60,658 nt of DNA from Rozella allomycis CSF55. Taxonomy: Eukaryota > Rozellomycota. Below, piece by piece: positions 48,343 to 53,002 of the stretch (within the stretch, counting starts at the first letter, position 1; each line of letters starts with the position of its first letter). The notes beneath the pieces were generated by a model. That model was not told where the DNA came from and searched no databases. It was given only the letters and a program-made list of their open reading frames with translations. Where the stretch lies: assembly GCA_000442015.1 (NCBI GenBank), contig KE561074.1, positions 1-60,658 of the forward strand, read 5' to 3'. The position numbers and the translations under genes are program-made.

Positions 48343-48477
48343 ATAAAGAGACTTTGATAACTTAATAACATACTATTTCCACTATAGATATCTAAATGCA
48401 TCCAAATCATTATATCTTGATATTTTGAATAAAATTAGTAAGATTTCAACGGACATCCTTCTTCGCGAGCCAATCTG

Positions 48478-48621
48478 ATGCAGAAATTGTCAACAAAGAA
48501 ACTACACTCTTTAAGGCATCAAAAATCCATTGCCATTTTCTCATTCATCAAACAATTTTATGTAAAACGCGACAAAGATTGCGTGTATTCCGCTAAATTT
48601 ATGGTTAATGTGATTGTTTAG
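48478..48621 (+). pseudogene. truncated copy of the 5' end of the condensation-like gene at 53130
   Basis: The short frame MQKLSTKKLHSLRHQKSIAI and beyond aligns with MQKPSIKEIILLRHQESIHE at the start of the large downstream gene. At DNA level the shared block starts at caatctgatgca and runs about 65 bp at roughly 75% identity. After that the frame diverges and stops at 48621. It is in the same orientation as the intact gene 4.6 kb away. Confidence 0.65.
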
Positions 48622-48759
48622 GAATTAGGGATTGAATGGGCAGTGGGAGTCTCAATTAACTACATGAGCATATAGTGGAGAGGAGTCATAACTACAAGAG
48701 AGGAATAAAGCATCATCCATGAACAAGTAGTACATCCTTACACTTTTCATAAGCATAAT

Positions 48760-49074
48760 TCAATCCATTTGTCCTTTTGAAGACTTCTCCAGACCTTGCA
48801 CTCGCAAAAAGCCATTCTCAAATGCACAATCTTCCATGTGTTCAACTAGCACAACAAAAGGCTTTTTTTGGTTTCTTTGTTGCTTCTTTTTAGATCGATA
48901 GATACAAAGAAGCTTAGAATCTTTTTTGTCTTGCTATGTCTATTTTTCCTCATCTGTGAGAGAAGAAACTGGCAAAGTTTGTGCCTTTCTCACTATTTTC
49001 TCAGATACAGGTATAGTTTTGCGATCGAAAGGCCAAGGATCATCTGTTGCCAATTTAGACGATCCATTGACCAT
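48760..49074 (-). CDS. possible two-exon unknown protein
   Basis: The minus strand is open from an ATG at 49074 (MVNGSSKLATDDPWPF), and a 36-nt candidate intron near 48938-48973 links it to a second open frame containing KPFVVLVEHMEDCAFENGF, ending at 48760. The plus strand is also open over part of this region, so the model is weak. No family is recognised. Confidence 0.3.
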
Positions 49075-49208
49075 TCTCTATTTTCCAAAAGATTTTGGAA
49101 TATTTGAAGCACTTCATGTGCCTATTCATATTGGAATTATGTATATTCTCTCCCGGTAATATTAAAAATAACAACATCATCAGATTTATCACTTATTACT
49201 CAATCCAA

Positions 49209-49427
49209 TCAAAAAGTCTTGGGTGTATGCTTCAATGCTTTTATCTGGCAAGGGTATCCTTTGATCTCATGTTTTATTGTATTTTCCAACCAAATAAAGT
49301 TTTCGATACCCAACTTGGCTTGCAATGAGCGTTTGAGATAATGTAACTGTTCTTGATAAATGTACACTTTCGACAGTTCCATCATCAGCATATCTGCAAT
49401 TGCTATCACTTGTGATTTCACACTCAT
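49209..49427 (-). CDS. small coiled-coil protein
   Basis: From the ATG at 49427 about 40 residues look like a helical coiled coil (ADMLMMELSKVYIYQEQLHY). Read straight through, the frame ends at 49209. An alternative removes a 44-nt intron (gtatcg...catgag) and continues as QRIPLPDKSIEAYTQDFLIG to 49189, which looks more protein-like. No family is assigned. Confidence 0.35.
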   Translation of the reverse strand: MSVKSQVIAIADMLMMELSKVYIYQEQLHYLKRSLQAKLGIENFIWLENTIKHEIKGYPCQIKALKHTPKTF

Positions 49428-49619
49428 TTTAATCGGATCCGTAGCCTAACATGCTTTTTTATATTTTGAGATACAAAAAAGACTAAGATTCAATTCGTAT
49501 ACATTATCAAGTGACAACCAGCATAAGAATAGATGACTGTAATTTTCTGTCACACATATTATTATAGTTGTTTTGCATTTATCAAAGTCAAGAAAATAGA
49601 AATATGAATACAAAACTGT

Positions 49620-50461: not shown

Positions 50462-51502
50462 CTATTTCATTAATAATTTAATAGTCCTAAAAGAGTCAGA
50501 GTAACTTAATCTAAGCAGATTTGTGTAGGTGCCAATAAGATCTGTCAATGGCTTCTTGCTGTGTTCCCAATACACATTCACTGCAATCATGCACATTCGG
50601 GGAACGCCATAAGTCAAGGACATGAGACTCATCAATTTGTGGTCCGCAAGAAAATCCTCAAACGAAGCAGTCCAAGGATCATTGTCATTCTTCTCTGCTT
50701 TGCCATATTCAAACCTTTCCTGCATTGTAAGGGGCGAGAGATAAATATTTCTCACATTGAAATCCCCATTTTGAATCAGCTTTAGATTTCCATCAACAAT
50801 ACCGCCAACAATAGCATAGCAGTTGGCAGGGAGTTTGGTCAAAGCACATGAAAGTTGAGTTCTGTGAATGACTTTTTTTGTTATAGATCCATCCTCGTGC
50901 AATGTATCTCGATTGAACGAACAATCTTCAAGGAATGTTTGAACTTCATCAAGGATAAACACGAGTTTGGCAGTTGAAGAAACACCAAAGGCGATGTTCG
51001 TCAGTCGAATCAACTCGGTTATGCTTCTAAAATTATCTGTCATCACAGCCTTAATCCAACGAACAAGCGTATAATGAGCTCCAGGGGCTTCTCCATTGAC
51101 AATCTTGTTCATAGTCAACTCACTAAACTTGATTCCATCAACAGTGCAGCCACGGAAAATGTAACAGAGATGGTGCACAATTAAATCTCTCCAAAGAAGC
51201 TCTGAATCCCCTCGAGAATACTTCTTCATCTCATAGACAATCAACCTCCCAACATCTCTGGCTGCCTTCAATGGATTGTTCTCATGCTTTGTCGCCAGAT
51301 ACTTGCACATGGTCGTCTTTCCCATTCCCCGAGTAGTACTCATCGATATCACTCGTGTCTTATCATTGTGCCATGTCATAAACTCGTCAATAGACTTCAG
51401 TTGTTCAGTTCGCCCAAGTAGAACCTTTGGTATCCCGTTTGGTTGAATAAATTGAAGTTCAAGGGGTACCGAGTAGCTCTCTGGCTTGAAATCAACATCC
51501 AT
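50462..51502 (-). CDS. CRN-like P-loop NTPase
   Basis: About 346 residues starting MDVDFKPESYSVP. Walker A is TTRGMGKTTMCKYL, Walker B is LVFILDEVQTF, and a sensor-like strand reads AIVGG. This is the STAND/AAA-like NTPase of Crinkler proteins. The first bases belong to an exon: the preceding aaatag is an acceptor identical in layout to one in the header gene upstream (aaatag followed by a related sequence and GTGATGGATGTTGATTT). The natural protein therefore probably began with a header domain. A 766-bp element now lies in that intron position. It is followed by the nuclease ORF at 50435. Confidence 0.6.
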   Translation of the reverse strand: MDVDFKPESYSVPLELQFIQPNGIPKVLLGRTEQLKSIDEFMTWHNDKTRVISMSTTRGMGKTTMCKYLATKHENNPLKAARDVGRLIVYEMKKYSRGDSELLWRDLIVHHLCYIFRGCTVDGIKFSELTMNKIVNGEAPGAHYTLVRWIKAVMTDNFRSITELIRLTNIAFGVSSTAKLVFILDEVQTFLEDCSFNRDTLHEDGSITKKVIHRTQLSCALTKLPANCYAIVGGIVDGNLKLIQNGDFNVRNIYLSPLTMQERFEYGKAEKNDNDPWTASFEDFLADHKLMSLMSLTYGVPRMCMIAVNVYWEHSKKPLTDLIGTYTNLLRLSYSDSFRTIKLLMK

Positions 51503-51526
51503 CACTAATTGGGTAGTTCCTATTTA

Positions 51527-51649
51527 TCGGACGGGGAGTTTACGACCCGGACTTCAGAAACGATTATTGGCAAGTTGAGTTAATGCCATTTTCACTTCGA
51601 ATATACACTCACTTTAAGGGTTTTACACCGTGAACCAGGGTGGTTGTCG

Positions 51650-51691
<42 letters not shown>

Positions 51692-52292
51692 GTGTCTGTA
51701 ACCATTTTTTGCTTCCGTTTTCTCCCAAATTTGGTCTTTGAACTCAGAACATGCAATATATAAAGTAATATTTATTTTCAGCCCCTTTAGTAAAGGTAGT
51801 TGTTGAGATATAGATGGCGGAAGTTTTGGAAGCGGTATGTTGGATTGCTCATTAATATCGTCCATATGTGTCTAATTACATATAAATAAAATTAAATTAA
51901 TAAATTGTTCTTTTATCTACTTTATTAGCGTTTTAGAGACATTAAAATCGCTTGTTACACTTAGTTTTGAACTTTTGAGTCCCATAGACAGCATAGTGTA
52001 GCAAATCTTTAAAAGTATACAATTGTATAATTATTATTATATTAATTTAAAGATAAATGTTTTTATTAGAACAAGATAAATGGAGATTCGGGATTCGCAG
52101 GAGGAAACTGGAAAACGGTAAATGAAGGTCACAGGCGATAAAAGAAACCGGTAAAATGAATTCCTGAATGTTTTGAATATAGATAGATAGATTCTATTTT
52201 AGGCGATTAACGCTAATGTAAAAAAATGATTAGACAGAAAACAGTTGTTTTGTGTGAAAAAATTTATTGATAATTATAAACTCCCCGTCCGA
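51527..52292. mobile_element. MITE-like non-autonomous DNA element, 16-bp TIRs, TTTA target duplication
   Basis: Perfect inverted repeats TCGGACGGGGAGTTTA (51527-51542) and TAAACTCCCCGTCCGA (52277-52292) bound 766 bp. The direct repeat TTTA lies immediately outside each end (51523-51526 and 52293-52296), as expected for a target-site duplication. Inside are a (GT)16 tract, AT-rich sequence and an 80-codon minus ORF (51623-51865) with no transposase features. It sits between the CRN header exons and the NTPase exon, at the position of an intron. I cannot assign a superfamily. Confidence 0.8.
51652..51683. repeat. (GT)16 microsatellite
   Basis: Uninterrupted GT dinucleotide run, followed by an imperfect GTAT/GTGT tail, inside the 766-bp element. 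Confidence 0.95.
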
Positions 52293-52293
52293 T

Positions 52294-53002
52294 TTAACGA
52301 GCACTGCGAGACTTGTTATTGAAACTTTGACACTTACTTGCGTTTTTGATTTCGTTTAGCTTTTCAGATATTGTATATCCATCATCTTCACCGAGCTTTT
52401 GAATCCACTTTGGCTCTTTCCATAGATAGTATTGGCCAAACGGAATAAGTTCTCCGTCATCATCTTCCATTTTCTGTTCAAACAGTTCCTTCAAGTCTTC
52501 TTGCTCGTCTTTGTTCAACCAATTTTGAAACTCGTTCTTTTGATGTTCGGATGGCAGGATTGCAGGCTTAAAATCAACATCCATCACTACTTGGGCAGAA
52601 CCTATTTATTATTCAAACTTTGATACTTACTTGCTTTTTTGATTTCGTGTAGCCTCCCAAATACAGTGCCTGCAGTAGCGATATCATTCAACATATCCTT
52701 CCATGTGTCTTTATCCCATAGACAGTATTGGCTAAACGGAATAAGTTCTCCGTCATCATCTTTTATTTTCTCTTCAAACAGTTCCTTCAAGTCTTCTTGC
52801 TCTTCTTTGTTCAACCAATTTTGAAACTCGTTCTTTTGATGTTCTGTCATGTCNGATAGTATTGGCCAAACGGAATAAGTTCTCCGTCATCATCTTCCAT
52901 TTTCTGTTCAAACAGTTCCTTCAAGTCTTCTTGCTCGTCTTTGTTCAACCAATTTTGAAACTCGTTCTTTTGATGTTCTGTCATGTCAGTGGACAAAGCC
53001 AT
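52294..53002 (-). CDS. CRN-like header gene with tandem header domains
   Basis: From the ATG at 53002 (MALSTDMTEHQKNEF) the minus strand encodes a header of about 85 residues: NEFQNWLNK, then DLKELFE, DDDGELIPF and a C-terminal helix. A 29-nt intron (gtaagt...aaatag, near 52612) joins it to SAQVVMDVDFKPAILPS. A second header copy follows that is about 80% identical at its start. It then meets another donor (gtaagt at about 52337), exactly where the 766-bp element intervenes. A single N at 52854 with a partial third copy marks an assembly ambiguity, so copy number is uncertain. The shared MDVDFKP segment ties this gene to the NTPase at 51502. I infer one original gene. Confidence 0.5.

What the first reader, a model, noticed from the sequence alone, without database searches (positions are those of the whole stretch)
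48471..53002. A Crinkler-type locus (headers, NTPase, QxK nuclease) broken by a transposable element
Three consecutive minus-strand pieces have the parts of one CRN protein: header repeats ending in MDVDFKP, a P-loop NTPase starting MDVDFKP, and a PD-(D/E)XK-like nuclease with QCKN. A 766-bp element lies in the intron between header and NTPase, and a stop plus frame change separates NTPase from nuclease. It could be a dying effector gene, or an operating one in which the element is spliced out.
Basis: partly seen in the sequence, partly recalled or inferred. Interest (0 to 1): 0.75.

Follow-up and report, generated by a model that had tools for sequence, protein, structure and literature searches.

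The report
Broken Crinkler-like gene with jumping element
In a parasitic fungus close to Rozella, a gene for a Crinkler-like DNA-cutting protein is interrupted by a recently inserted mobile element inside a tiny intron and by a frame break further on, so it is most likely a dying copy of a known kind of gene.

Summary
The genome (9.97 Mb, 213 contigs) has Rozella allomycis as closest named relative. The minus strand carries two header units (a further partial copy is an assembly artefact at a single N), a P-loop NTPase ORF and a PD-(D/E)XK-like nuclease ORF keeping E, D and QxK. Relatives of chytrids and unnamed sources carry NTPase and nuclease in one protein, the Crinkler-RHS-type (CR) layout. 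The header is not the ubiquitin-like Crinkler header; its model is all-helical, weakly SAM-like. The element (790 bp, 51526-52315) is no TIR transposon: one inverted repeat is terminal, the other lies 22 nt inside, and it sits between two Ts without visible target duplication. This fits a non-autonomous Helentron/Helitron2-like element; another copy is 99% identical, so it moved recently. It occupies an intron whose uninterrupted counterpart is 29 nt, where candidate introns peak at 25-31 nt, so clean splicing of 818 nt is unlikely. Verdict: a decaying CR-type gene, a new member of a known kind. Most novel open reading: the header-toxin intron is a joint for header swapping, exploited by rolling-circle elements.

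The parts
52855..53004 (-). start of the gene (ATG at 53004) plus a partial header copy that ends at the single N at 52854; the copy is probably an assembly artefact
   Evidence: 124 consecutive bases identical to unit 2, rest matches unit 1, N at the midpoint of the duplication
52631..52850 (-). header unit 1, coding part (MTEHQKNEF... to the donor site)
   Evidence: all-helical model, pLDDT 84.8
52602..52630 (-). 29-nt candidate intron GTAAGT...TAG, phase 1, between header unit 1 and its MDVDFKP junction (41- and 44-nt alternatives exist with the same donor)
   Evidence: an equivalent 30-nt stretch in the C156 header, L022
52338..52601 (-). junction with MDVDFKP followed by header unit 2
   Evidence: (D1-D3)
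51520..52337 (-). second candidate intron, now 818 nt because it holds the element; donor GTAAGT, acceptor TAG
   Evidence: (coordinates)
51526..52315 (+). non-autonomous Helentron/Helitron2-like element, 790 bp, flanked by T on both sides, no target duplication seen
   Evidence: 99% identical copy at C153:5913-6676 over 768 query bases
51526..51542 (+). 5' terminal copy of the 17-nt inverted repeat ATCGGACGGGGAGTTTA
   Evidence: (I12)
52277..52293 (-). inner (subterminal) copy of the inverted repeat, 22 nt from the 3' end
51652..51699 (.). GT/CA microsatellite inside the element
50462..51505 (-). P-loop NTPase ORF, Walker A RGMGKTT, Walker B VFILDE, ends in TAG
49620..50435 (-). PD-(D/E)XK-like nuclease ORF; E98, D173, Q190-C-K192 kept

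Best explanation
A decaying CR-type (Crinkler-RHS-type) gene of a Rozella-like fungus. Inferred original plan: helical header (duplicated, each unit joined to the next module through a ~29-nt phase-1 intron and a junction ending in MDVDFKP), then a P-loop NTPase that would regulate the nuclease, then a PD-(D/E)XK nuclease that would cut nucleic acid. Shown: the modules, their order, their relatives, the kept catalytic residues, the element, the frame break. Inferred: that the three were one protein here, that the product acted on host or invading DNA, and that the locus no longer makes it. A rolling-circle element landed recently in the second header-NTPase intron and stretched it to 818 nt; separately the NTPase ends in a stop and the nuclease continues in another frame. 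The likely outcome today is at most separate header, NTPase and nuclease fragments.
Confidence: 0.75

Rival explanations
1. Still working as a split system: header, NTPase and nuclease are separate products, or the element is spliced out as part of a long intron.
For: Donor and acceptor of the interrupted intron are intact; each ORF is open with motifs kept; the nuclease ORF has its own ATG.
Against: Candidate introns peak at 25-31 nt, and 818 nt is about 28 times the uninterrupted copy; 7 of the 10 relatives read are fused; the NTPase frame ends, by eye, before the linker seen in relatives.
Confidence: 0.12
2. The frame break (and perhaps the element's placement) is an assembly or base-calling error and the gene is intact.
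For: 12 single-N joins in the window, 7 with duplicated flanks; paralogue C208 is a mosaic of N-joined pieces.
Against: No N lies between 49620 and 52853 (one search lists all Ns); both element ends are clean and follow the T-T rule of other copies.
Confidence: 0.12
3. The NTPase-nuclease is not an effector but an intracellular DNA-defence or selfish-element protein; the header would be a local interaction domain.
For: The review PMC5289972 (passages) reports that prokaryotic NTPase-REase pairs are linked with transposable elements and that plant CR proteins may target intracellular invasive DNA; the header is helical rather than ubiquitin-like. A secretion signal was not looked for.
Against: No inverted repeats of the element family surround the whole gene: at up to 1 mismatch the only two ends on this contig lie inside it.
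Confidence: 0.25

Closest known systems
CR (Crinkler-RHS-type) proteins with NTPase plus REase modules (Zhang et al. 2016, not held; known here only through passages of the review PMC5289972)
   Same: Order header, P-loop NTPase, restriction-endonuclease-like domain; the review reports various unrelated helical headers.
   Different: Header all-helical, weakly SAM-like, duplicated, joined through a ~29-nt intron; the copy is broken.
Oomycete Crinkler (CRN) effectors with LXLFLAK/ubiquitin-like header
   Same: Toxin half of the NTPase-REase kind.
   Different: No Pfam match of the header above cut-off and no match of PF20147 (Crinkler) in this genome (that search had no positive control and proves no absence).
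Uncharacterised proteins of chytrids and unnamed sources (P0008, P0009 Gorgonomyces haynaldii; P0031 Globomyces pollinis-pini; P0012, P0017, P0019)
   Same: Homologous NTPase and nuclease; 4 of the 10 read (P0008, P0009, P0012, P0017) begin the NTPase module with ME/DVD- or MDVDM-like letters as in MDVDFKP.
   Different: NTPase and nuclease in one frame; other or no header.
Helentron-associated elements (HINE/DINE-1) and Helitron2 (PMC4067079: abstract, section 6 and passages)
   Same: Asymmetric or subterminal inverted repeats, T-rich target with T on both sides, no target duplication seen, microsatellite, no protein of its own found.
   Different: Inner repeat 22 nt from the 3' end rather than 38-60 nt as in the mite families; no convincing 3' hairpin; no intact autonomous partner with these ends found.

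Membership tests
CR-type NTPase-REase proteins | P-loop NTPase with Walker A and B | tested here: met
   RGMGKTT and VFILDE aligned over relatives; Pfam AAA models reach only E 0.011 for the window piece, under their cut-offs, but relative P0006 passes AAA_16
CR-type NTPase-REase proteins | PD-(D/E)XK nuclease with E, D and QxK | tested here: met
   by homology, motif and model, not by activity; some relatives have SxK instead of QxK
CR-type NTPase-REase proteins | NTPase and nuclease in one polypeptide | tested here: not met
   stop at 50462-50464 and frame change in the window; met in 7 of 10 relatives read
CR-type NTPase-REase proteins | N-terminal header domain of any kind | tested here: met
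   two units upstream, joined at MDVDFKP
CRN effectors (ubiquitin-like header, LXLFLAK) | ubiquitin-like header | tested here: not met
   no Pfam hit at E <= 1 for unit 2 and one sub-threshold hit (NPA, E 0.17) for unit 1; model all-helical, blocks of residues 1-70 at pLDDT 86-91
CRN effectors (ubiquitin-like header, LXLFLAK) | delivery into host cell | not testable with these tools
   needs localisation
SAM domain (header) | five-helix SAM fold | tested here: inconclusive
Helentron/Helitron2 non-autonomous element | asymmetric inverted repeats and T-T target without target duplication | tested here: met
   absence of target duplication judged by eye on 5 copies
Helentron/Helitron2 non-autonomous element | 3' stem-loop | tested here: inconclusive
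   about -0.1 to -0.6 kcal/mol with DNA parameters
Helentron/Helitron2 non-autonomous element | autonomous Rep/Helicase partner with the same ends | tested here: inconclusive
   PF14214 has 5 matches in the genome, 4 over cut-off; a decayed one at C130:1673 lies about 0.9 kb downstream of a 77% identical element start at C130:768, across an N; in an ungapped test no 5' or 3' end within 10 mismatches of 30 or 39 nt in L086-L090

The most novel reading that the evidence does not exclude
In Rozella the ~29-nt intron between header and toxin is a standing recombination joint: header cassettes, each with its own copy of the intron and junction, are duplicated and swapped there, and rolling-circle elements both break and shuffle them, much as helitrons have been proposed to do for oomycete CRN genes.
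Probability: 0.15. Interest if true: 0.6.

Novelty: new member of a known kind. Interest (0 to 1): 0.36.

Why it matters
It shows a CR-type nuclease gene family in an early-branching parasitic fungus, largely in pieces among the loci seen here, with a helical header unlike the oomycete one, and a rolling-circle element caught inside one member. If elements and header-joint introns do drive header swapping, the old proposal that helitrons shuffle Crinkler genes could be tested in a 10-Mb genome.

Tried and rejected
TIR (cut-and-paste) transposon or MITE: rejected, because the two repeat copies are not both terminal, no target duplication is visible in 5 copies (by eye), and the 5' flank is T in 27 of 27.

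Three real header copies: rejected.

An intron that would explain the NTPase-nuclease break: the scan printed no GTAAG or GTATG candidate there (positions of other donors were not printed). A plain listing of GT...AG stretches of 20-60 nt shows none of 25-31 nt over the stop at 50462-50464; only 44- and 53-nt stretches with the non-consensus donor GTTACT cover it.

Stops in the C191:4 kb paralogue as tiny introns: no GTAAG-like donor with an AG 24-32 nt on near its two ORF ends; a few other GT...AG stretches exist.

CR-type loci as cargo of the element: at C208 and C156 an element end lies close to family pieces, but C156 and the upstream C208 end are N-joined. The downstream C208 copy is contiguous: it starts 18 nt after the stop of the nuclease ORF there (ORF end L014:2643; element start L014:2661). 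Element clusters (65) lie within 1 kb of 3 of 10 family loci against 0.21 expected (Poisson P 0.0013), 3 against 0.71 within 5 kb (P 0.035), 5 against 2.36 within 20 kb (P 0.09). Both kinds crowd at contig ends, so this is not proof of a link.

Against the novel reading: a search of the genome for the MDVDFKP junction with up to 2 mismatches found only the two window copies.

Foldseek gave nothing at E <= 0.001 for either model. No ubiquitin-like fold appears in the header's VIA list, which compared only 22 chains. NCBIfam gave nothing over cut-off. No PDB sequence hit at E <= 1 for the NTPase or nuclease piece. A first, simpler intron-length test was weak: 9 TAG/CAG sites in the 24-35-nt bins for 17 GTAAGT sites, about 4.7 expected, and no excess for GTATGT. 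The dN/dS line for header 1 against header 2 was misaligned and is dropped; 9 further rows there had no computable dS. Zhang 2016 and James 2013 are not held. 'Rozella' with 'Helitron' gave 3 papers (listing only) and 'Rozella' with 'Crinkler' 3 (listing; one passage read); no listed title is about such elements or introns, which proves no absence from print. Rozella intron density, but no length, was found in passages of PMC8476143. PMC5364385 (passages) treats Crinklers of other chytrids and does not mention Rozella.
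Full report
Where it is. The window is contig C143 of an assembly of 9,970,177 bases in 213 contigs. The closest named relatives of the NTPase and nuclease pieces are hypothetical proteins of Rozella allomycis CSF55 (O9G_005640, 78% identity over 86%; O9G_005539, 78% over 69%). Of the 8 NTPase matches in this genome, the 7 outside the window's own reach at most 68%, so this may be another isolate or species of Rozella, or those CSF55 copies are missing from the assembly. Rozella allomycis is a parasite of the fungus Allomyces (recalled).

Anatomy. On the minus strand, from 53004 down: ATG and a partial header copy; an N at 52854; header unit 1; a 29-nt stretch with GTAAGT...TAG (52630-52602); a junction ending in MDVDFKP; header unit 2; a second GTAAGT (52337) whose TAG acceptor lies at 51520, with the element in between; the same kind of junction and the NTPase ORF; a TAG at 50462-50464; and the nuclease ORF in another frame. 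Neighbours are an M28 peptidase ORF (46522-48342, +) and a long ORF with a Condensation domain (53109-56162, +), divergent to the locus.

The extra header is an artefact. 12 single-base Ns lie in the window; at 7 of them the sequence before the N is repeated after it over 32-133 nt (89-100% alike), against 1 hit in 2000 random draws. The copy at 52855-52987 is one of these. It is identical to unit 2 over 124 consecutive bases and agrees with unit 1 in the remaining bases, where unit 2 differs, as expected if a contig end was extended with reads from the other unit. Units 1 and 2 themselves are joined without any N.

The intron. Unit 1 without splicing runs into a stop within 10 codons of the donor; with the 29 nt left out at least 40 codons are open on both sides, and the same holds for 41- and 44-nt alternatives from the same donor. 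The 29-nt form is preferred because a header relative at C156 (37-46% identical) has the same arrangement with a 30-nt stretch and similar inner letters. Over the window, donors GTAAG, GTAAA, GTATG and GTACG between two open frames of at least 40 codons give 28 of 89 first candidates of 25-31 nt, against 164 of 2661 for permuted pentamers (odds ratio 7.0, p 1.7e-12). Donors and bin were chosen after a first look in which the total number of GTAAG candidates, 22, was ordinary (controls: mean 18.4, range 5-45) and GTGAG had 6 candidates, none of 25-31 nt; so the p-value is optimistic. It is a signal from sequence alone, with no transcripts. In unit 2 the same intron measures 818 nt because of the element.

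The element. 63 matches, a lower bound, and 57 near-exact ends fall into 65 clusters. Ends were compared in all loci then held (L001-L085), which hold 30 of the 63 matches and 30 of the 57 ends as fetched centres: 27 distinct 5' ends, all preceded by T and 25 by TT; 12 distinct 3' ends, where a 22-nt tail follows the inner repeat and 11 of 12 close with TTG before a T. No target duplication is visible in the five copies with both ends (window, L025, L032/L082, L034, L039, by eye). Asymmetric or subterminal repeats, a T-T target without target duplication, and a microsatellite are the marks given for Helentron-associated elements, and asymmetric terminal repeats for Helitron2, in PMC4067079 (abstract, section 6 and passages). 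Against a full match: no clear 3' hairpin, and the tail is shorter than in the mite families. The genome has Helitron-type Rep domains (5 matches of PF14214, 4 over cut-off); a decayed one at C130 stands near a decayed start of this element, but across an N. The copy at C153:5913-6676 is 99% identical, so the family moved recently.

Relatives and fusion. The profile search found 28 proteins. Of the 10 read, P0008 and P0009 (Gorgonomyces haynaldii) and P0012, P0013, P0017, P0019, P0021 (unnamed jgi and ena sources, probably metagenomes) run NTPase and nuclease in one frame. P0029 does so without the QxK region, P0031 (Globomyces) lacks the start, and P0006 (Rozella) has both modules with SIK as third motif. 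P0019 and P0029 start with stretches that look ubiquitin-like to me; Pfam does not say so. In this genome an ORF at C191:105 kb also runs from NTPase into the start of the nuclease behind a coiled-coil-like N-terminus, but two Ns lie in that ORF; so at least one divergent, more intact member seems to exist. Other members at C38, C151 and C191:4 kb are in pieces with stops or missing stretches. dN/dS: 7 rows of NTPase and nuclease pieces with dS up to 0.8 give 0.58-1.7 over 42-150 codons; two with dS near 2-3 give 0.21 and 0.46; header unit 1 gives 0.13 (C5), 0.21 (C153) and 0.46 (C38), header unit 2 0.59, 0.59 and 0.42 against the same. These are short pieces of mostly broken copies and show only that constraint is weak or lost in recent time for the toxin half, less clearly for the header.

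Reading. The parts are those of a CR-type protein as described in the review PMC5289972 (passages), where the REase is thought to be the toxic part and the NTPase to regulate it. Membership in that wider class is met by modules and order, not by the single polypeptide; the narrower Crinkler class (ubiquitin-like header) is not met. Two lesions, an element in a tiny intron and a frame break with no tiny consensus intron over it, make loss of function the most likely state. A base error at the break and splicing of the long intron remain open.

Novel reading. A like intron appears at three header units of two loci (window units 1 and 2, C156); the header plus junction is duplicated as one block; another N-terminus precedes the same junction in the unverified gene model O9G_005640 (P0001...GTVQVVMDVDFKP); and an element sits in the joint. 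The review notes that helitrons are concentrated around some oomycete CRN genes and were proposed to drive their recombination. The nearness of elements to family loci (3 of 10 within 1 kb, 0.21 expected; weaker at 5 and 20 kb) is in line with this, but may reflect that both collect in repeat-rich contig ends. Against it, the MDVDFKP junction itself was found only in the window, and C156 has a diverged form.

Noticed in passing
window 12888, 14892, 28830, 34759, 40549, 52854, 60533: Single-N joins with duplicated flanks create false two-copy tandem repeats; 7 of 12 single Ns in the window show it.
   Followed up: yes
window, both strands: Candidate introns cluster at 25-31 nt (28 of 89 against 164 of 2661 controls; bin chosen), which suggests very short introns in this genome.
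   Followed up: partly
G000 C106, C130, C209, C166 (L086-L090): Helitron-type Rep domains, 4 of 5 matches over the Pfam cut-off; C209 has a 521-aa ORF at the Rep match and, downstream, ORFs that look helicase-like to me.
   Followed up: partly
L014/L004 (C208:62-65 kb): A mosaic of CR-type NTPase and nuclease pieces in both orientations, joined by single Ns, with the element starting 18 nt after the stop of a nuclease ORF.
   Followed up: partly
window 53109-56162, +: 1017-aa ORF with a C-terminal Condensation domain (PF00668, E 2.3e-14), divergent to the CR locus about 105 nt away.
   Followed up: no
G000 whole genome: No match to Pfam Crinkler (PF20147), although PMC6299283 (one passage) implies crinklers in Rozella and/or Microsporidia; the search had no positive control.
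   Followed up: partly
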